DNA from: a virus | IMG/VR virus record: IMGVR_UViG_3300003691_000302 | Coordinates: 1 to 22,631 of that record | DNA length: 22,631 nt | Direction: 5' to 3' (one strand) | In this document: one piece after another, positions 220 to 22,631 of the stretch | Layout of the letters: the number at the start of each line of letters is the position of its first letter | How positions within the stretch are numbered: position 1 is the stretch's first letter | The notes under the pieces: generated by a model | What the model was told of the DNA's origin: nothing | The model's database searches: none | The model's input: only the letters and a program-made list of their open reading frames with translations | Position numbers and translations under genes: made by a program

Positions 220-2064
220 TTATAAAAAGAACCTTTTTAGAGTTTTGAGCTGGTCTGGCTCCCAATCTCCTTGCTCTGGAGAGCTTGGTAACTCCAGTCC
301 ATACTTACTTTCCCAGTAATTACGGAGATCTTCTAGGTAGTTTCCACTATATAACTCTATAAAAGTGTCGATAATGTAGGTGTATAAGACATCTCTATGG
401 TTGCAGTGAGTAGAGAACGAGTCATGAATGAAGATCATTGGCAGTCCACTACCACTTAGCTTGGCGGCAACCATCCTGAGGTGAGTGGCATCACATCCAT
501 GAATAATGTTTGGTGCGATGGCAGATCTGTGCTTAGCTGTGTTGGGTATTTCCTTGGTGAAGTCTAGTATTTCAAGGGAAAGCTCTTTGCCAGAACTTAG
601 CATACATACTATCTGTAGCCTCTCTCCCTTTACTTTACGCTGCATAGCCTCGAATCCATCCGGTGTTAGCCAGTGTATTTCTGTGTTACCTAGCTTAGCT
701 ATTGTAGTTGCACAGTCACTAACCCAGTCTACAGCAGCCCTTAAAGGCCCCAAAGTTTCGTTTAGGCGACGGTATAGGTCAGCCCCTAATCGTCCTGATA
801 CGGGCCGCTCCAGCCCCTCTCCCGACACCTTATACTCAGCCAAATCCCTGTCCCAGACATATTTTGCCCCAAACAATTTACTCATGTGCTCCATCGAAGT
901 CATCATAGTGGCATTGTAGCCCCAAGTCATGACAGGTATTTTAGCTGCCTTCCTTGTAGCGAAACACTTCTGCTCCTCAGGTAGTGTATCTTTCCAATCT
1001 TCGGCCACCTTCTCATAAATGTCTAGCTCTGCTTCTTCCTTGTGCATACCTAAGTGTTTAGTAATAGCATTTGATCTAGTTACTGCTGACCAATGTTGGA
1101 GTCCAGAACACCTTCCATCCAAGGGTATAAATGCAGGCAATGCCTGTGTAGGATCTATCTTATATCGCCTGACCAAGTTAGCACAGGCGAGAAATGAGTA
1201 CGGCTTATCTGCCTCTCTCCATACTTCCTCATATCTCTCTGGGTTTCCACCTATTTGAGATATTAAGTCCTCAGGCAAATCCAGCTCTGCATAGCCTAAG
1301 GCAGTTTCTAACAGTGCTGCGTACCCACTTTCTGTAAGTACTTCTGAGTGTACGGGTAAGATAATGGCCTTTTCATGGTCAGCACCCTGTGGAGTCATAC
1401 CGCATGTGGTGCTTACATAGAGCCTAGAACGACTGTCAAGGAAGTAAGGATACCTAAACTCCTTACCCAACAACTCCTTAGCAGAGGACATCATCCTGTT
1501 ATACATATACTCTGAGCCAGCCTCCTCAAACTTGGGTGGCATTGTCTTAAGGAGGTTGTAAATAAACTCATTTACTACGAATTTCTCTTGAGACATTGGC
1601 TTAGTTATCTGTGCTATCTTCTTATTTGTGACAGAGCTTACCCCACCACGGATAGGTGACTTGCTAATCCACTCGCCATTTAGCTTTGGCATGACTACTA
1701 CAGACTCTGGAGCCTTACAATTGCCCAATTCAAGCTCTAGTAACTTCTTTGTTGGGACTACTATACGTTGATCCATACCCTTGTTAAACCTTAAATACCC
1801 AGATGCCTCCATTTCTCCCATGAATCTTAGGGAAATATTGAAAGGGTCTGTAGCTTCAAGCATCTTCTTGGCCATTCTAGGCACTGCTGAGTGCAATGGA
1901 AGCTCAAACAGCAGGTGCATGGAGTATAGGCAATGTGTATAGGCCCTAGTCCAGCGGCTTTTAAGATCTTTGTCCCATCTTCTTTGACTAACATCGTCCG
2001 GCTTGGTAAATCCCTTAACCCTTCTGGGTAGAGGCAATATAACTCCGCCATCTAGTATTAGCAT
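220..2064 (-). CDS. Single-subunit (T7-type) DNA-directed RNA polymerase, short form
   Basis: This is a phage RNA polymerase that should transcribe phage genes from its own promoters in the cytoplasm. All catalytic landmarks of the T7 family are visible: motif A PLDGRCSGLQHWSA with Asp316 (T7 Asp537), motif B RKAAKIPVMTWGY with Lys375 and Tyr383 (T7 Lys631 and Tyr639), and motif C IHDSF with Asp548 (T7 Asp812). The segment YFLDSRSRLY matches the T7 WRGRVY region. The protein has 614 residues against 883 in T7, and nearly all of the loss (about 210 residues) lies before residue 216, so most of the N-terminal promoter-recognition/melting domain is missing. The start is supported by AAGGAGG at 2069-2075. 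It is the last gene of the replication cluster, 16 bases after the ligase. RNAP identity is very sure; promoter specificity is unknown. Confidence 0.96.
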   Translation of the reverse strand: MLILDGGVILPLPRRVKGFTKPDDVSQRRWDKDLKSRWTRAYTHCLYSMHLLFELPLHSAVPRMAKKMLEATDPFNISLRFMGEMEASGYLRFNKGMDQRIVVPTKKLLELELGNCKAPESVVVMPKLNGEWISKSPIRGGVSSVTNKKIAQITKPMSQEKFVVNEFIYNLLKTMPPKFEEAGSEYMYNRMMSSAKELLGKEFRYPYFLDSRSRLYVSTTCGMTPQGADHEKAIILPVHSEVLTESGYAALLETALGYAELDLPEDLISQIGGNPERYEEVWREADKPYSFLACANLVRRYKIDPTQALPAFIPLDGRCSGLQHWSAVTRSNAITKHLGMHKEEAELDIYEKVAEDWKDTLPEEQKCFATRKAAKIPVMTWGYNATMMTSMEHMSKLFGAKYVWDRDLAEYKVSGEGLERPVSGRLGADLYRRLNETLGPLRAAVDWVSDCATTIAKLGNTEIHWLTPDGFEAMQRKVKGERLQIVCMLSSGKELSLEILDFTKEIPNTAKHRSAIAPNIIHGCDATHLRMVAAKLSGSGLPMIFIHDSFSTHCNHRDVLYTYIIDTFIELYSGNYLEDLRNYWESKYGLELPSSPEQGDWEPDQLKTLKRFFL

Positions 2065-3045: not shown

Positions 3046-3234
3046 CTAGTGCATTGTTGGTGGCTTGCTGGTTTCTAGCATCTTATCTATTATCTGGATA
3101 ACGTATACTAGGGATTTTGCAGTGAACCTTAACACCTCTGTGGTATCTTCTCTGCTTAGCTTGTCTCTATTTGCATCATCTATCATAGTTTGGACAAACT
3201 TCTTTGCTGTATCTATTTCTATCTCTTTTGACAT
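3046..3234 (-). CDS. Small hypothetical protein (62 aa)
   Basis: The gene encodes a 62-residue, charged, probably helical protein starting MSKEIEIDTAKKF and ending KPPTMH. No family is recognised and no membrane segment or cysteine is present. GGAGA precedes the ATG at a good distance. The stop codon is 2-8 bases before the candidate ligase starts, so it probably forms one translational unit with the ligase. It lies between phosphoesterase and ligase, which suggests a minor DNA-metabolism accessory role, but this is only context. Its frame fits the packed array and no better ORF covers the same bases. Confidence 0.65.
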   Translation of the reverse strand: MSKEIEIDTAKKFVQTMIDDANRDKLSREDTTEVLRFTAKSLVYVIQIIDKMLETSKPPTMH

Positions 3235-10860: not shown

Positions 10861-11494
10861 TTGCCTTTTGCTCCTCTATGAAATCTTTAAAACTCTCTTC
10901 AGATACTTTCAGTGCTTGCTCTACTAAACCAGTCTTGCTTCGATTATCTATAAAGCTGTCTGTGTAGTGGGCATCAACAAGAATAGCACAACATGCCATT
11001 ACATGAGCTAATTCATGTTGCCCCGACTCTTCATCAAAGTCTACCCCATCTTGCCATTTTAGGAAGTGTCGATTGATTGCTCCGATATGTGTCTGAGCAT
11101 CAACTCCAGACTCTCGAAAGTTGTGGAAACCATACTTATAAGCACCACCAGCCATTACGTTAGCCATCTGAATCATGGGTAGCGTGGGCAGTGTGTGCAT
11201 AGGAGCCTTGATAGCACCGGCAGCCTTCTTGGGGTTTACTAGTGGGTCATCAGATAGTGGGCCTGTAGCAGGCCCCAACTTACTCTCCTCTAGCAAGAAC
11301 TCCCAGCTTATAAAGCTTATGTGTCCACACTTACTCGACATGAACTCTGGGTTACGCGATAGGTCATCTCTGTGTAGTGTTATTCGTTCTCCTACGGGGA
11401 AGGTACTTGCTCTAGATCTTACTACAAACGTACCCCCCTTATTGTAGGAAGTAGTCCCATCATTTAGCGGGTACTTATTAGTGGATTTCGGCAT
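10844..11494 (-). CDS. dATP/dGTP diphosphohydrolase-like protein (DUF5664 type)
   Basis: This 216-residue protein resembles the all-alpha phage family annotated as dATP/dGTP diphosphohydrolases with a DUF5664 domain. Visible signature: MIQMANVMAGGAYKYGFHNFRESG (two family motifs, near residues 105-130), then INRHFLKWQDGVDFDEESGQHELAHVMACCAILVDA with the HE/H metal-type residues. The N-terminal 80 residues are not recognised. The start ATG at 11494 is preferred because TTTGGAGAT lies just upstream; an earlier in-frame ATG at 11506 has no such site. It lies directly after the polymerase C-terminal fragment and overlaps thyX. Family activity (removing dATP/dGTP, possibly to adjust the pool) is inferred. 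Confidence 0.75.
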   Translation of the reverse strand: MPKSTNKYPLNDGTTSYNKGGTFVVRSRASTFPVGERITLHRDDLSRNPEFMSSKCGHISFISWEFLLEESKLGPATGPLSDDPLVNPKKAAGAIKAPMHTLPTLPMIQMANVMAGGAYKYGFHNFRESGVDAQTHIGAINRHFLKWQDGVDFDEESGQHELAHVMACCAILVDAHYTDSFIDNRSKTGLVEQALKVSEESFKDFIEEQKASENNS

Positions 11495-12044
11495 AGCTAT
11501 CTCCAAAGCTTACATCACAATCAAGTTTGCGGTTTAGTTTAAGTTCGTTATTTACTTTATCTATTGAGTCTTTCAAAATCTTAGTCATAGCTTCTCTATT
11601 TCCTTTCGGTAGCTCCCAAATTCCCTCATCATGAAACTGGGCAGTTAGTTGCTCTCGGGCTTCAAGGACATGGTATAGCCATCGGTCGAAAGCATATGTG
11701 CCTGTAGACTGGTTAAGTGTTGAGAAACGATCTTTCTCTGCTTTTAAGTATACCCACATGTTAGACACAGGATTCCATAACCACTTCATGCCTCTTGAGT
11801 TCTTAACTAGGCACTCGTCAGCAATCGCATTCAGAGACCAGTTTCGTTCCCAGTATGCTGTGTGTAGCTGCTCTCCAAGGTCTTCGCTAACATTTGCACT
11901 ACGGGCAATAGTAGGCCCAGTAGCACCGTAGGTAGCTGCGTAGTTAGTACTCTTTCCTGCATGTCTTGCTAGGGATATTTTGTCAAACAGCTCCTTCTGC
12001 TCCTTTTCTGGCAGTTTCTTCATTTCTGCAAGTGTCATAGACAT
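11478..12044 (-). CDS. DNA polymerase (family A, T7 gp5-like), C-terminal fragment
   Basis: This is the fingers/palm part of a split T7-type DNA polymerase. The 188 residues hold motif B RHAGKSTNYAATYG (Arg27, Lys31, Tyr35, Tyr39, with the spacing of T7 Arg518, Lys522, Tyr526, Tyr530) and motif C QFHDEGIWEL (His138, Asp139, Glu140), and end SYAEIH like T7 WAECH. Motif A is absent; it is on the upstream fragment, so this piece alone cannot polymerise. It has its own start: AAAGGAGG at 12051-12058, 6 bases before the ATG, and an in-frame TAA just upstream. The start lies inside the HNH endonuclease gene, overlapping it by 62 bases in another frame. It probably assembles with the N-terminal fragment. 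Confidence 0.93.
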   Translation of the reverse strand: MSMTLAEMKKLPEKEQKELFDKISLARHAGKSTNYAATYGATGPTIARSANVSEDLGEQLHTAYWERNWSLNAIADECLVKNSRGMKWLWNPVSNMWVYLKAEKDRFSTLNQSTGTYAFDRWLYHVLEAREQLTAQFHDEGIWELPKGNREAMTKILKDSIDKVNNELKLNRKLDCDVSFGDSYAEIH

Positions 12045-12480
12045 GTTTGGCCTCCTTTAAGGTGTTATAGCAGCCTTTGCTTTTACTTTGAAATCTTACG
12101 CTAAACTTTCCTGCATCTTTTCTTTTAAGTATGCCTAAACATCCTAGTTCAGAGTCTCTGTGCCCTTCGCTAATGTTTAACCCATTTTGTGACTTGGAAA
12201 GTTCTCTTAGGTTGCTTTTGCAATTGTTTAGTTTATTTGTGTCTTCATGATCAACCAGTGCTGGCCACGAAGTATGGTAGATCCAGTATAGTACCCTGTG
12301 TACGTAGTACCTCTTGCCCAGTATTGATAGTGTTTTGTAGCCTCGAAGTCCTATTGTCCCCACTTCAGAGTGTGCCCTCCATTGCTTGTAGGTATTTCGT
12401 CTTAAAAGTTTGCCATCCTTGGCGTAGTAATTGCTTGATATGTATTCCTCAAGCTTTTCTAGTGTTGTTCCTTGTACCAT
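11983..12480 (-). CDS. HNH homing endonuclease with AP2-like domain, inserted in the DNA polymerase
   Basis: This 165-residue mobile endonuclease should cut polymerase genes that lack it and spread by repair. The HNH core is at residues 60-92 (HRVLYWIYH, VDHEDTNKLNN, NLREL), followed by an AP2-like DNA-binding unit (about 113-150, LGCLGILKR...FSVRF...CYNTLKEAKHVY). It is clearly related to the second HNH protein of the window at 13882-14421. The gene starts inside the polymerase N-terminal fragment (overlap 22 bases, SD GGAG) and ends inside the C-terminal fragment (overlap 62 bases). The last dozen residues, rich in E and A, look like polymerase sequence read in another frame, so the stop may have been captured after insertion. 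Confidence 0.93.
   Translation of the reverse strand: MVQGTTLEKLEEYISSNYYAKDGKLLRRNTYKQWRAHSEVGTIGLRGYKTLSILGKRYYVHRVLYWIYHTSWPALVDHEDTNKLNNCKSNLRELSKSQNGLNISEGHRDSELGCLGILKRKDAGKFSVRFQSKSKGCYNTLKEAKHVYDTCRNEETARKGAEGAV
12051..12058 (-). promoter_or_regulatory. Shine-Dalgarno for the polymerase C-terminal fragment, inside the HNH gene
   Basis: AAAGGAGG stands 6 bases before the ATG at 12044 while also encoding LKEA of the AP2-like part of the endonuclease. A near-perfect site here argues that the C-terminal polymerase piece is translated on its own. Confidence 0.75.
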
Positions 12481-13871
12481 CCGTAAAACTCCGACTCATC
12501 CTCTGTCATTAACCCTGCTGCTACTGCCATATCGCAGTGAGGATCAAACCCTGACTTCATCATGTCTCGAACATAGTCGGGGTCATGCTTCCACATATAG
12601 CTTTGTTTAGTGCGATCCTCAAGAGAGGACATATCACTTCCACACAACTCCCACTTCTCACCTTTAGTAGTTAGTAGGCTGCGGATAAGCTCTCCGTGGG
12701 GCTTGCGAGTAGATGGTATATTTACACAAATCTTATGCTTAAACCGTAGGGTATTAGTAAGGCCCTGAATAGCTGCATAGATAAACCCGTTGTAATCTAC
12801 ATTTGTTATGAAGCCGTTTACTATTGATAGCCTGTGCTTAACAACTGACATATCCTCTAGGTATTTTAATGCTGGCTCATACTTAATTAGAGCAAGTACT
12901 GAATCACATAACTCATCAGTTTCTTGATTCTTAATCTGGGGAACCTTTCGTACTTTGTTTGTCTCCTTATTTCGGACAAACTTAAAGCTTTCGGGAACCC
13001 AGCCCATGTAGAATAGCCAGTCCTTAATCTGTTGGGGAGATCCAGCATTAGGCTCTTTGTAGCCTGTGATAACCACTACCTCACCAAAGAAGTCCATTGG
13101 ATCTCCGTGGTAGTATTCTTCAGGATCTACATTCTTCTCTACAGTTTCCTTCCAACGTTTGCCAGTAGCTGACATATCTCCATTTACTAGGAAGGGCTTC
13201 TTAGGACGAGTCCTCTTGGCCTTAATAGGAACTTGAGGCATATTCTTCTCAAGAGCTGTCTTGGCTTCCTCAAACTTTTCAGAGAACATTTCTGAAGCCT
13301 CTGTACACTTAACTAAATCCAGCTTCCACTTACACTTCTCTTGAAGAGTAGCCTGCTTAGCCTTAAAGTTTAGGTGTCGGATTAAGTGCCAGCACTCTTG
13401 TGGGTTTCTGTATAGTAGCATTAGGTGCTTCCATACCTGCTTCCATAGGGCTACTTGTATCTGTACATCTACTTCGCAACGCTCTACATATTCTTCTAAG
13501 GTTAAGCCTACCCAATCATCAATTTCTACTTTGGATATGCCTAGCTCTTCTCCCCATATAGCTAGGCCATGCCTAACCATTTTGGGGTACAAGTACCAAG
13601 ACAGGAACAGAGTATCAATTACCTCTGCCTCCACCTTGATATTATAAATCTTTTCTATTGCAGGCGCATCAAATGCAACTCCATTGTGCATAATGAGGAT
13701 GTTGTTGGGGTCAGTAAACAGTTCTACTATGCCCTCTTTCTCGGTGTGTGTTCCTGCATTCAGTACATCCATGCTTGGTGACATTTCTGCATAACTGGTG
13801 CAGTACACCTTAGTGATCCCATCTAGTAGGTTGTCACCCTCAATATCTGCACAATAAAGTCTATGTTTCAT
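12459..13871 (-). CDS. DNA polymerase (family A, T7 gp5-like), N-terminal fragment
   Basis: This is the proofreading and thumb/palm part of the phage replicative polymerase. The 470 residues begin with a DnaQ-like 3'-5' exonuclease: ADIEGD (Asp9, Glu11), HNGVAFD (Asp68) and YVERCEVD (Asp135), all acidic residues kept. The thumb and palm follow, with motif A GSDMSSLEDR (Asp413, T7 Asp475). It ends soon after motif A at WYKEQH, where a stop created by the HNH gene cuts the frame; motifs B and C are on the separate fragment at 11478-12044. Together the two pieces total about 658 residues (T7 gp5: 704). The start has AAGGAGC just upstream. It follows an HNH gene by 10 bases. Confidence 0.95.
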   Translation of the reverse strand: MKHRLYCADIEGDNLLDGITKVYCTSYAEMSPSMDVLNAGTHTEKEGIVELFTDPNNILIMHNGVAFDAPAIEKIYNIKVEAEVIDTLFLSWYLYPKMVRHGLAIWGEELGISKVEIDDWVGLTLEEYVERCEVDVQIQVALWKQVWKHLMLLYRNPQECWHLIRHLNFKAKQATLQEKCKWKLDLVKCTEASEMFSEKFEEAKTALEKNMPQVPIKAKRTRPKKPFLVNGDMSATGKRWKETVEKNVDPEEYYHGDPMDFFGEVVVITGYKEPNAGSPQQIKDWLFYMGWVPESFKFVRNKETNKVRKVPQIKNQETDELCDSVLALIKYEPALKYLEDMSVVKHRLSIVNGFITNVDYNGFIYAAIQGLTNTLRFKHKICVNIPSTRKPHGELIRSLLTTKGEKWELCGSDMSSLEDRTKQSYMWKHDPDYVRDMMKSGFDPHCDMAVAAGLMTEDESEFYGWYKEQH

Positions 13872-13881
13872 TCTAAGCTCC

Positions 13882-14421
13882 TTAGGCTATTCTATCACTG
13901 CGTAGTTGCATTCTAAAGGTTGACTCTTTTATAAGTACGGCCATCCTTTTCTCTCTTGCTATGTTGTATGCCACAAGTGCTTCTTCAACACTATTGAAAG
14001 TCCCAAGGCAAGTAGATTTGCATCTAAAACTTATTTGAGCCTGAAACTTATCCCTGTGCCTATGTACTCCTGTTGGCAACCCCTCTGCCCTTATTTGCTT
14101 ACTTGGCTGATTAAAACTGTTTAATGCTTTACAAGAATCTCTTAGGTTGCTTGGACTGTTATTTAACTTATTTTGATCTATGTGATCTATAATATCCGGC
14201 CAGTATCCATGCCAAATCCAAAATACTACTCTATGGGACTTTAGCTTTCTACCTAGTATATTTATGTACCTATACCCTTCTCTTAAACTTAAAGTACCTG
14301 CTTCTTCTCCAGCCAAGAACTGTTTGTTAACTGCTACTTTCCTAATTAGCTTTCCATCCGCCAATAGTAAGTTTTCTCTTATATATTCTTCTACTTCATT
14401 ACTAACTCTTTTGGCCTTCAT
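13882..14421 (-). CDS. HNH homing endonuclease with AP2-like domain (free-standing)
   Basis: This 179-residue protein has the same plan as the endonuclease inside the polymerase. The HNH core is at about residues 62-95 (SHRVVFWIWHGYW, IDHIDQNKLNN, NLRDS), and an AP2-like DNA-binding unit follows (about 115-155, TGVHRHRDKFQAQISF...CLGTFNSVEEALVAY). It lies between the primase and polymerase genes: its start overlaps the end of a 56-residue ORF by 20 bases and its stop is 10 bases before the polymerase start. It may have come with, or from, the same element as the inner copy. No intron-like flanks are seen. It could target a site in a neighbouring replication gene of related phages. Confidence 0.92.
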   Translation of the reverse strand: MKAKRVSNEVEEYIRENLLLADGKLIRKVAVNKQFLAGEEAGTLSLREGYRYINILGRKLKSHRVVFWIWHGYWPDIIDHIDQNKLNNSPSNLRDSCKALNSFNQPSKQIRAEGLPTGVHRHRDKFQAQISFRCKSTCLGTFNSVEEALVAYNIAREKRMAVLIKESTFRMQLRSDRIA

Positions 14422-18176: not shown

Positions 18177-18199
18177 AAAAATCTCCTTAGCTCAAATTA

Positions 18200-18226
18200 A
18201 AAAGCCCCACACTAGGCAGGGCTTTT
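18200..18226 (-). terminator. Rho-independent terminator
   Basis: On the minus strand AAAAGCCC pairs with GGGCTTTT (8 bp, extended by G-U and G-C pairs to about 11) around loop CTAGT, followed by TTTTTAATTTG. It lies after the acidic 93-aa gene and before the 437-aa gene. The arms resemble the hairpin after SSB (5474-5497). Confidence 0.85.
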
Positions 18227-18231
18227 GTCAA

Positions 18232-18251
18232 ACTAAGCAGTAGTGCTTAGT
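18232..18251. repeat. Perfect 8-bp palindrome over a stop codon
   Basis: ACTAAGCA, spacer GTAG, TGCTTAGT: a perfect hairpin spanning the stop codon of the acidic 93-aa gene, directly before its terminator. It could be an mRNA 3' stabilising hairpin, a second part of the terminator, or a binding site. Confidence 0.7.
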
Positions 18252-20892: not shown

Positions 20893-21327
20893 CTAGAAAG
20901 GGTTGTCTTCTGTGTTTACTGAACCCATTACGCAAGGCTCATCACCATTTGCTTGGGCTAACACTGTAATGTTACGCTCATCTTCGAGCCAAGTAGTGAA
21001 TTCTTCGTGTGACTCAGCAACCTTGACATCGAACTCGCCTGCAACAGCCTTCTCACCGAAGTAAGCTACCGAGACAATTGAACCAACAGCAGCGGCTACG
21101 TCAGCATTACTGAAGTTTCCGAAGTTATTCCACTCATCATCGTAGTTAATTGCTACGCGATAGGGTAGGTCAATGTCAAATCGGTTAGGATGTACATTAT
21201 ATCCTCGGTTGTCACGAAGGATTGCTTCTTTGCACTGTACAAACTGCTCGTCAGTCATTGGTGTACGACGCTTGCTTGCATCTACTTTGTTAAGCTTGCT
21301 CATTTTTGCTAGGATTGATGTGGTCAT
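20893..21327 (-). CDS. Acidic hypothetical protein with SSB-like C-terminal tip (144 aa)
   Basis: This unrecognised 144-residue protein begins MTTSILAKMSKLNKVDAS after AAGGAAG. The first 25 residues are basic; the rest is acidic, with beta-rich YRVAINYDDEWNNFGNF and VGSIVSVAYFGEKAVAGEFDVKV. It ends NTEDNPF, which looks like the C-terminal tip of bacterial SSB (DDDIPF), the part bound by many DNA-repair proteins. That likeness is short and may be chance. GC-richer codons and a hairpin directly downstream suggest strong expression. It is the second gene after the large noncoding region. Confidence 0.75.
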   Translation of the reverse strand: MTTSILAKMSKLNKVDASKRRTPMTDEQFVQCKEAILRDNRGYNVHPNRFDIDLPYRVAINYDDEWNNFGNFSNADVAAAVGSIVSVAYFGEKAVAGEFDVKVAESHEEFTTWLEDERNITVLAQANGDEPCVMGSVNTEDNPF

Positions 21328-21445
21328 AGGATTCTTCCTTAGGTAAAGTTAGTTTCTTGATTAGTTTCGCTACGGCTCTCCAACAGATTTCTAGAAAGGC
21401 TAACCATAGTAATATACATACAGCTACTGTTATCCAAGTAATCAT
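21290..21445 (-). CDS. Small single-pass membrane protein (51 aa)
   Basis: This 51-residue protein starts MITWITVAVCILLWLAFLEI, with one membrane segment at residues 2-20 and then a basic cytoplasmic-like tail (RAVAKLIKKL) ending in a polar end. The ATG at 21445 follows CGGAGATTTAAC and is preferred over the in-frame ATG at 21475. It overlaps the start of the 144-aa gene by 38 bases. It could be an inner-membrane factor that alters host physiology or lysis (holin-like size, but holins usually have more hydrophobic length). The function is unknown. Confidence 0.65.
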   Translation of the reverse strand: MITWITVAVCILLWLAFLEICWRAVAKLIKKLTLPKEESYDHINPSKNEQA

Positions 21446-21481
21446 GTTAAATCTCCGTTGTAGTGCTGAATACACTACTAG

Positions 21482-21534
21482 ATATGCTCACATTCACCAA
21501 GCTAGGGTATTAAGCCTTGATGTTTAGAGCATAT
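21482..21534 (-). other. Long two-part hairpin at the 3' side of the noncoding region
   Basis: On the minus strand ATATGCTC pairs with GAGCATAT (8 bp). Inside, CATCAAG(G)CT pairs with AGCTTGGTG (about 9 bp, one bulge and one G-U). It ends the structured region 37 bases before the 51-aa gene. There is no T tract, so a simple terminator is unlikely; it may be the 3' closing domain or a processing hairpin of the candidate RNA. Confidence 0.65.
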
Positions 21535-22368
21535 TTAGTAATATACTTTGAGTGGGTTAGGTATACTACAGGCCGGTTACTATCTCAACAGTTGCTACAC
21601 TGCACTTCGATAGCCTCCCGGCCTGTAGGTATTCCCAGCTAAAATATTGGCAAAGATCTTTTAGTCGCAGCTAGTCCATGTGCATCCCTTTTCGGGAAGG
21701 AGACTGCGTAGCCATCGGGAGCAACCCCGAATCAAGCCCAATCTAAGTACACCCAATAATATAACAACTCCTCGCCCGCTAAAGCTTGAAGTAGAGTTAC
21801 CACCTCCTTATTTAAAGCCGTTTGGCTGGTTACGGATTACGCATAGTCACCTTGCACAATGCATCGGGGGCTAAGTTAACTTCGTTTCTACAAAGAGTAA
21901 CCAACTCTCCTTACAATGGTTTGGCTGACATAAGTCAGCAGTGCTTTCAACACCTTAGCATGTTCTCCATACTAGCCAGATAGTTTTAATTGCTTCTGAC
22001 ATACGCAAAGCTATATATTTAAACTGGCGAGCAACCAGTATGAAACTGCTCCAACACTAGTAATCGGGCAGTTAGACATTTGGACGCCGACCTAAAGCAG
22101 GCATGACTTACATAGGTCGGCTAGAGCCAGATTTACTTGAATGCAGACTCTAATTATCAAGGCCATTAGCTATCTGGCAGTATTGAACAACACCTCGGAA
22201 CCCCAAGACATTGACAATTTGGTTGCCAGCCAGTTATTAAGGCTGGACTAAGAGCTTATGCTTTTACTTGCCTGCTCCCTCAGTGAGGTATGAACAGTAC
22301 TCCTGTGGCAAGGTCTAGGTCTCGTTTTGTGGGCTAATTAATAGCTAATATGAGATGCCTAGAGGAAA
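21482..22368 (-). ncRNA. Candidate large structured noncoding RNA (about 0.9 kb)
   Basis: There is no credible gene across nearly 900 bases in a genome where gaps are otherwise under 100 bases, yet the sequence is full of inverted repeats. Examples: 11 bp perfect (21566-21576 with 21618-21628), 9 bp (22086-22094 with 22113-22121), 8+9 bp (21482-21534), a 6-bp tetraloop hairpin (21924-21939), a 6-bp hairpin with AGAA loop on the minus strand (21880-21895), TCGGG/CCCGA (21715-21730), and a three-way-junction-like fold closed by CTTGCC/GGCAAG (22267-22312). The minus strand is favoured because all genes run that way. Length, phage origin and lack of ORFs recall GOLLD and ROOL RNAs. No family match could be run, and a replication origin is an alternative. 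Confidence 0.55.
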
Positions 22369-22414
22369 TCTTTAATGTGTTTAATCTTTTGTCTTTAAGG
22401 TGTTTAATATTTGG
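22369..22414. repeat. Tandem 23-bp direct repeat at the edge of the noncoding region
   Basis: Two adjacent 23-bp units, 22369-22391 and 22392-22414, agree at 20 of 23 positions (core TCTTTAA[T/G]GTGTTTAAT). The repeat covers the stop codon of the 71-aa gene and abuts the 5' side of the candidate RNA. It could be a regulator site or phage promoter pair; no third full copy was found in the gaps checked. Confidence 0.7.
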
Positions 22415-22596
22415 TCTAAGCTTTCCCCAGATTTGAGTATGTTGTTGCGGTGTCTTTTCCAAGTCCAACCCGTATCTACCTTGACACGCTCTCCAAGGTC
22501 TCCGATCTGCTTGTTTTGTGCTAGGCAGATCTCTGTCAATTCATTTACTGCTTCTGTTAAGGCGTTGATTTGTAGTTGTAGCGTTGCATGATTCAT
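22381..22596 (-). CDS. Small coiled-coil protein (71 aa)
   Basis: This 71-residue protein starts MNHATLQLQINALTEAVNEL. Heptad-like spacing of L, I and V through residues 5-40 predicts a coiled coil, so it probably forms dimers or trimers. The ATG at 22596 follows GGAGAATCTA; an in-frame ATG at 22608 has no ribosome site. The C-terminal half (WTWKRHRNNILKSGESL) is basic. It is the first gene in the window for leftward transcription. No family is recognised; a phage regulator or structural accessory are both possible. Confidence 0.7.
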   Translation of the reverse strand: MNHATLQLQINALTEAVNELTEICLAQNKQIGDLGERVKVDTGWTWKRHRNNILKSGESLDQILNTLKTKD

Positions 22597-22631
22597 TAGA
22601 TTCTCCAAGTTGAGTTGCCCTCTAGCCAGTA

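What the first reader, a model, noticed from the sequence alone, without database searches (positions are those of the whole stretch)
21482..22368. Roughly 0.9-kb hairpin-rich region: candidate giant phage RNA
The region has no ORF worth calling, in a genome with almost no gaps. It holds at least ten inverted repeats, several perfect at 8-11 bp, with nested stems and three-way-junction-like folds along the whole length. That is the expected form of a large ornate RNA. GOLLD and ROOL are phage-associated RNAs of about 0.6-0.9 kb with unclear roles, GOLLD being induced during phage production. This could be a member or a new class. No tRNA was seen beside it, although GOLLD is often near tRNAs.
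Basis: partly seen in the sequence, partly recalled or inferred. Interest (0 to 1): 0.88.

Follow-up and report, generated by a model that had tools for sequence, protein, structure and literature searches.

The report
Long structured phage RNA, new class
A 0.9-kb stretch of a phage genome that codes for no protein folds far better than chance as RNA; it sits where a whole family of related-looking phages carries an undescribed 1-kb RNA whose shape evolution demonstrably protects, so phages may hold a large unexplained RNA in plain sight.

Summary
The region is real and unusual. It is the only large gap (905 nt, 21476-22380) in a tightly packed leftward gene cluster. It has no credible ORF and no Rfam match. 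As leftward RNA it folds better than all 24 gene-covered windows of the same record (-290.7 against -238 +/- 14 kcal/mol; z about -5, stronger than the other strand). The signal lies in a 3' domain and a central domain; 21660-21860 is no better than chance, and perfect inverted repeats (3 of 8 bp or more) are not above chance in number. GOLLD and ROOL membership is not supported. No sequence relative of the region was found, so its stems could not be tested by covariation. Distant relatives carry a 0.5-1.4 kb ORF-poor gap between a T7-like RNA polymerase gene and the SSB-like gene. All 23 Chaseviridae-type genomes read have about 1.0-1.4 kb of such sequence after their polymerase gene; in Cleopatravirinae its stems show strong compensatory change (0/500 shuffles). 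No description of it appeared in Rfam or the held literature. Covariance models from that RNA do not hit the window, so the link is position and character only. Best reading: a long structured noncoding RNA of a new class; function unproven.

The parts
21466..22365 (-). Structured noncoding region, read leftward; proposed long RNA of about 0.88 kb
   Evidence: No ORF; E -304.2 against shuffled mean -259.9, z -5.8, 0/100 shuffles; strand-biased
21469..21547 (-). 3'-terminal long hairpin (12 + 8 bp main stem), just upstream of the start codon of the next small gene; no U run, so not an ordinary terminator; possible processing site or RNA end
   Evidence: Inverted repeat I1, 19 nt, 84%; pair probabilities 0.95-0.99
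21566..21628 (-). Hairpin with perfect 11-bp CTACAGGCCGG/CCGGCCTGTAG stem (21566-21576 with 21618-21628) and nested inner stems
   Evidence: Inverted repeat I4, 100%; pair probability 1.00; 21466-21650 z -6.8
22020..22240 (-). Central domain closed by a long-range helix (22235-22220 with 22037-22022), enclosing stem-loops at 22213-22188, 22178-22126, 22121-22086 and 22073-22044
   Evidence: Inverted repeat I2, 16 nt, 88%; pair probability 0.86-0.89; z -5.0
21849..22011 (-). Second multibranched domain
   Evidence: z -3.3 for 21850-22015
22347..22377 (-). Weak phage-promoter-like sequence ACATTAAAGATTTCCTCTAGGCATCTCATAT at the 5' edge; candidate start point only
   Evidence: Resembles repeated TCTAGG sites of relatives by eye, but scores 6.4 against 14-32 for those sites and is not above chance in this window
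22381..22629 (-). Small ORF upstream of the region (82 aa, open at the record's end), no family match
21290..21475 (-). Small hydrophobic ORF directly downstream (ATG at 21443)
   Evidence: no family match
20893..21327 (-). SSB-like small protein (144 aa, acidic tail ending in EDNPF); the anchor used to find relatives
   Evidence: 38-62% identical relatives in L002-L007, L009, L014, L017, L018; the SSB assignment is inference, no family match
220..2064 (-). T7-like single-subunit RNA polymerase at the far end of the cluster; relatives carry a further polymerase gene just before the gap
   Evidence: Pfam RNA_pol 5.1e-49

Best explanation
The region is a noncoding gene for a long structured RNA of about 0.85-0.9 kb, transcribed leftward with the neighbouring genes. 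It belongs, by position and character, to a class of long structured RNAs that lie just after a T7-like RNA polymerase gene and before an SSB-like gene in this phage group and, separately testable, in Chaseviridae. Most likely way of working (inferred): the phage polymerase or the host enzyme reads it early in infection, the transcript is set off from the downstream mRNA at or near its 3' hairpin, and it persists as a folded RNA that acts as RNA, binding a phage or host component. Shown here: absence of coding, strand-biased folding beyond chance, recurrence of such gaps in relatives, and covariation in the chasevirus RNA. Inferred: transcription, processing, stability, the target, and that the window RNA and the chasevirus RNA do the same job.
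For: Only large gap in the cluster, no ORF. Folding energy 3.8 SD below gene-covered windows of the same record and z -4.9 to -5.8 on the coding strand. Relatives found through the SSB-like protein have ORF-poor gaps of 0.5-1.4 kb after an RNA polymerase gene (L003 3869-4870, L006 4556-6003, L007 5102-6003, L009 7894-8630, L014 2138-2860; L017 has two such stretches either side of one ORF). The gaps of L003, L006 and L017b also fold beyond chance in gene sense (z -4.6, -4.6, -4.8). Phage-promoter-like sites, often in tandem, stand at the head of these gaps in L003, L006, L007, L009, L014 and L017. Chaseviridae gaps of about 1.0-1.4 kb (part of the interval carries small ORFs in some): all 23 fold beyond chance in polymerase sense, z -3.8 to -20.8, stronger than antisense in most. 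In Cleopatravirinae the 5' domain has 98.3% of cells paired, 12 of 25 pairs with two-sided changes, covariation score 0.414 against 0.151 (0/500 shuffles) and collapse on sliding; a second hairpin has 100% paired and 0.386 against 0.065.
Against: No homologue of the window region, so no covariation for its own stems; single-sequence folding above chance is weaker evidence. L002 and L005, also relatives, have ordinary small genes or at most a short gap at this place, so the element is not universal. Covariance models from chaseviruses miss the window. No statistically supported promoter and no expression data. Part of the region (21660-21860) folds no better than chance. L007 and L009 gaps fold only weakly (z -1.3 and -0.9).
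Confidence: 0.55

Rival explanations
1. Cis-acting replication origin of the T7 kind: transcripts started by the phage polymerase just after its own gene prime DNA synthesis, and the folded RNA shapes the primer or R-loop, as RNA II does for ColE1 plasmids.
For: In relatives the gap directly follows an RNA polymerase gene and starts with one or several phage-promoter-like sites, the layout I recall for the T7 primary origin (gene 1, then phi1.1A and phi1.1B; own knowledge). An SSB-like gene follows. L006 and L007 gaps hold repeats; some Nefertitivirinae gaps contain AT-rich stretches.
Against: T7's origin is short, not a kilobase of conserved RNA structure. The window gap has no AT-rich block (GC 0.42-0.44) and no iterons. 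Nothing here measures replication.
Confidence: 0.18
2. Long 5' leader: the structure is the untranslated head of the early operon mRNA and controls its translation, decay or processing.
For: The region lies directly upstream of, and on the same strand as, the small ORF and the SSB-like gene; the 3' hairpin ends about 25 nt before that start codon.
Against: Phage promoter-like sites reappear after the structured stretch and before the next genes in GJ1 and SA91KD (annotated), L006 (5888) and L009/L014 (8590, 2828), so the downstream genes need not share the leader. A terminator is annotated before it in SA91KD. About 0.9-1.2 kb is very long for a leader.
Confidence: 0.13
3. DNA-level packaging or genome-end site: the sequence carries the terminase recognition or cut site, and the hairpins are incidental.
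For: In Myduc, 4HA13 and Mangalitsa the annotated right end of the direct terminal repeat (3202, 3120, 3234) falls inside the gap. The window record itself ends about 0.25 kb upstream of the gap.
Against: Compensatory base changes that keep RNA pairs, and stronger folding in one strand, are not expected of a protein-DNA site. A cut site explains little of 1 kb. No end data exist for the window phage.
Confidence: 0.06
4. Decayed or junk intergenic sequence left by gene loss, with chance stems.
For: No relative to the sequence; region 21660-21860 folds like shuffled sequence; number of perfect inverted repeats not above chance.
Against: Fold energy outlier in its own record, strand bias, and repeated occurrence of such gaps at the same place in relatives.
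Confidence: 0.08

Closest known systems
GOLLD RNA (Rfam; phage and prophage)
   Same: Phage-borne, 0.8-0.9 kb, many stems and junctions, function unknown (PMC12286853)
   Different: No match to any Rfam model; no tRNA gene beside it; lies after an RNA polymerase gene in relatives, not in a tRNA island
ROOL RNA (Rfam; phage and prophage)
   Same: Long ornate phage RNA of unknown function (PMC12286853)
   Different: No Rfam match; different neighbourhood; no tRNA island
Post-polymerase structured RNA of Chaseviridae (found here; not in Rfam or the held literature)
   Same: Position after a T7-like RNA polymerase gene and upstream of an SSB gene; length about 1 kb; no protein; strong folding in gene sense
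   Different: No sequence similarity, and covariance models R1 and R2 do not hit the window; the polymerase gene expected on that side lies beyond the record's end; Chaseviridae SSB and the window SSB-like protein show no profile similarity
T7 primary replication origin (gene 1 / phi1.1A / phi1.1B)
   Same: In relatives: polymerase gene, polymerase promoters, noncoding stretch
   Different: T7's is short and AT-rich; not a kilobase of conserved RNA structure (own knowledge)

Membership tests
GOLLD RNA | Match to the Rfam covariance model | tested here: not met
   No match at gathering threshold in the window; permissive search of 21250-22631 lists only MIR7994, TLS-PK4 and an L31 leader, all at chance level
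GOLLD RNA | Near or containing tRNA genes | tested here: not met
   ARAGORN finds none in the window; 'often', not always, in the literature (PMC12286853)
GOLLD RNA | Expressed, rising during phage lysis; oligomeric cage | not testable with these tools
   Needs RNA from infected cells and cryo-EM
ROOL RNA | Match to the Rfam covariance model | tested here: not met
ROOL RNA | Typically near tRNA islands | tested here: not met
Chaseviridae post-polymerase RNA (defined here) | 5' three-way domain (model R1) | tested here: not met
   R1 hits L019 at 79 bits and nothing in the window, environmental relatives, Nefertitivirinae or Myduc at E up to 10
Chaseviridae post-polymerase RNA (defined here) | CCTATTATAAAGGCCC..CACAAGCCGGGA hairpin (model R2) | tested here: not met
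   R2 hits only L019 and, twice, L030 among the 19 sources
Chaseviridae post-polymerase RNA (defined here) | Lies directly after a T7-like RNA polymerase gene | tested here: inconclusive
   True in relatives L003, L006, L007, L009, L014, L017; the window record ends 0.25 kb upstream of the gap
T7-type replication origin | Phage-polymerase promoters at the start of the noncoding stretch | tested here: inconclusive
   Clear in relatives; the window site scores 6.4, not above chance
T7-type replication origin | Initiates DNA synthesis | not testable with these tools
   Needs infection experiments

The most novel reading that the evidence does not exclude
Phages that carry T7-like RNA polymerases outside Autographiviridae share a class of about 0.5-1.2 kb structured RNAs placed right after the polymerase gene; sequence has diverged beyond recognition between clades while position and RNA character persist, and the window holds one of them. 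The RNA has a dedicated role tied to the phage polymerase or the start of replication.
Probability: 0.3. Interest if true: 0.88.

Novelty: new variant of a known kind. Interest (0 to 1): 0.64.

Why it matters
Large structured phage RNAs are few and unexplained. A long RNA with demonstrable covariation, present in every chasevirus examined, including phages of laboratory E. coli, would give an easily grown system in which to delete, express and image such an RNA. It may also bear on how polymerase-carrying myoviruses start transcription or replication; the ICTV profile of 2022 says chasevirus promoters are unidentified (PMC12842549).

Tried and rejected
Rfam on the window, on the region permissively and on relatives: nothing relevant. 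BLASTN of the region in 50,697 phage records: one 26-nt chance match. BLASTN of the region against fetched loci: chance level. Exact 21-mer of the region in viral contigs: none. Two scans of genome contigs with the SSB-like and helicase alignments: none. The chasevirus hairpin pattern in viral contigs: none. Promoter argument for the window: attractive by eye, rejected as evidence after a position weight matrix built on relatives scored it no better than chance. Homology with the chasevirus RNA: rejected at the sensitivity of R1 and R2. Hidden coding: short ORFs inside have no family match. A first fold run over all gaps timed out and was repeated with a 250-nt pair-span limit.

Full report
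What is there. The window is a whole virus record of 22,631 bases with unresolved ends, from a phage with replication and nucleotide-metabolism genes all read leftward: SSB-like protein, Dda-like helicase, primase-like protein, DNA polymerase, ribonucleotide reductase, ligase-like protein, T7-like RNA polymerase (names not backed by a family hit are my reading of the translations). Between adjacent genes there is almost no space; the second-largest gap in the cluster is about 70 nt. The exception is 21476-22380, 905 nt. The longest ORF inside is 64 aa, antisense to the neighbours and without a family match.

Is the folding more than chance? Read leftward, 21480-22370 has z -5.2 against dinucleotide shuffles and -2.9 on the other strand. 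With 100 shuffles, 21466-22365 gives z -5.8, none reaching it. Compared with 24 windows of 880 nt covering the genes of the same record, same strand, its energy is -290.7 against -238 +/- 14 and its z -4.9 against -1.3 +/- 1.2. The signal comes from a 3' domain (21466-21650, z -6.8), a central domain closed by a 15-bp long-range helix (22020-22240, z -5.0) and a further domain (21850-22015, z -3.3); 21660-21860 is at -0.5. These sub-windows were chosen after seeing the fold, so their z-scores are somewhat flattered. Perfect inverted repeats of 8 bp or more number 3 against 1.6 expected, so counting repeats is not the evidence; one perfect 11-bp stem is unusual.

Known RNA? No Rfam family reaches its threshold anywhere in the window, and the permissive search of the region returns only chance-level families. 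There is no tRNA. GOLLD and ROOL are therefore not supported. What it resembles in kind is a long ornate phage RNA (PMC12286853).

Relatives. The region itself has no relative in any collection searched. The flanking SSB-like protein and the helicase do (45-70% identity in most cases). In L003, L006, L007, L009 and L014 a T7-like RNA polymerase gene is followed by an ORF-poor gap of 0.5-1.4 kb before the SSB-like gene or the small genes leading to it; L017 has two such stretches around one ORF. These gaps do not align with the window's or, L009/L014 excepted, with each other. Gene-sense folding is beyond chance in L003 (-4.6) and L006 (-4.6) and L017b (-4.8) and weak in L007 and L009. A promoter-like motif, consensus about TcTtTCTAGGnAGAcTAg, stands at the heads of these gaps, often in tandem, and scores 14-32 bits in relatives. 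The best-placed candidate in the window (22361, minus) scores 6.4, below several unrelated places; I do not count it as evidence. L002 and L005 lack such a long gap, so the element is not fixed in the group.

Chaseviridae. TBLASTN with the L006 polymerase reaches Chaseviridae. Pectobacterium phage PM1 and Erwinia phage Berlingot both have about 1.2 kb without genes after the polymerase. I then read the same interval in 21 further genomes, of both subfamilies, with hosts Escherichia, Erwinia, Proteus, Aeromonas, Shewanella and Vibrio. All have about 1.0-1.4 kb there that is not convincingly coding; some annotations place one or two small ORFs at its start or, in automatic annotations, inside it. 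All 23 fold beyond chance in polymerase sense, z -3.8 to -20.8, more strongly than antisense in most (15 shuffles each, so individual values are rough).

Covariation. In 14 Cleopatravirinae the 5' domain is a three-way junction: 98.3% of 345 cells pair, 12 of 25 pairs change on both sides, the covariation score is 0.414 against 0.151 in shuffles (0/500), and all measures collapse when partners are slid by one column. A second hairpin, CCTATTATAAAGGCCC..CACAAGCCGGGA, pairs in 100% of cells with score 0.386 against 0.065. A third, roughly 175-nt structure is predicted but less varied. Shuffles do not remove relatedness, but the collapse on sliding and four different pair types at one position argue for real selection on pairing. 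In Aeromonas Nefertitivirinae the fold is also beyond column shuffles (z -11.7) with 43 two-sided pairs against 22 shuffled, but the antisense strand is nearly as strong (-10.7, 34 pairs), so this is weaker evidence. Rfam has no match in PM1, and the papers on the family that I could read do not mention such an RNA; most subscription papers, including the phiEcoM-GJ1 genome paper, are not held.

Same family as the window? Not shown. Covariance models R1 and R2 find chaseviruses only: not the window, not its environmental relatives, and not even Nefertitivirinae. The SSB proteins of the two groups do not match by profile and the polymerases share about 27% identity. The common ground is position, length, lack of coding and RNA-sense folding.

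How it may work. GJ1 and SA91KD carry annotated putative phage promoters on both sides of the RNA, and SA91KD an annotated terminator before it. That suggests a separate transcription unit rather than a leader of the next genes. The window's 3' hairpin lacks a U run, so an end there would need processing. I therefore favour a discrete folded RNA acting as RNA. The main rival is a T7-like origin, where transcription right after the polymerase gene primes replication; the two are not exclusive. In three chaseviruses the annotated end of the terminal repeat falls inside the gap, so a packaging role of part of the sequence stays open.

Verdict. The wider finding, an apparently undescribed covarying RNA in Chaseviridae, is the stronger result and gives a laboratory system in which to test what such RNAs do.

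Noticed in passing
L019 2151-3371, L021 1752-3195, L031-L041: Cleopatravirinae post-polymerase RNA carries about 8-14 copies of GCATGT, a hexamer that is self-complementary when G-U pairs are allowed; several copies are predicted to pair with each other, so intra- or intermolecular contacts are possible.
   Followed up: partly
L023-L029: Nefertitivirinae gaps contain arrays of short hairpins such as GGCTC-TTC-GAGCC or GGCTC-TAAC-GAGCC, repeatedly followed by ACAAG or AAAAG.
   Followed up: partly
L030 769-821 and 987-1039: Proteus phage Myduc has the conserved R2 hairpin twice, as an identical copy 218 nt apart, and shows a G-C to C-G swap in its inner stem.
   Followed up: no
L030, L031, L034: The annotated PhageTerm right end of the terminal repeat lies inside the post-polymerase gap in all three genomes (record positions 3202, 3120, 3234).
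   Followed up: no
L006 5065-5530: The gap of L006 holds tandem repeats (TAGTTAGTATC, 11 nt; a 22-nt unit containing ACTTACTTAGTCAATATCAAGT), unlike the window.
   Followed up: no
L009 8115-8600, L014 2375-2840: Two relatives about 80% identical in the aligned part of the gap share repeated small hairpins CTGTCGAGATNCTTAACAG; paired folding is better in gene sense (z -3.4) than antisense (-1.5).
   Followed up: partly
window 11478-13871: DNA polymerase is split into two ORFs (12459-13871 and 11478-12044) with a 165-aa ORF between them (11983-12480) that reads like a homing endonuclease, and a similar ORF lies at 13882-14421: possibly an intron or inserted endonuclease genes.
   Followed up: no
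window 18177-18246: Intrinsic-terminator-like hairpin (AAAAGCCCTGCCTAGTGTGGGGCTTTTT) in the second-largest gap of the cluster.
   Followed up: no
L050 1800-2200, L017 2754-2864: Further noncoding stretch after the SSB-like gene; L050 holds a tRNA T-arm-like motif (GGGTTCGATTCCC) not called by ARAGORN, and L017 has a weak Rfam tRNA match (30.8 bits).
   Followed up: partly
window 220-2064; L003 1826-3868, L006 2603-4555, L007 2909-5101: The group appears to carry two different T7-like RNA polymerases, one before the gap and one at the far end of the replication cluster (about 23% identical where they align).
   Followed up: partly
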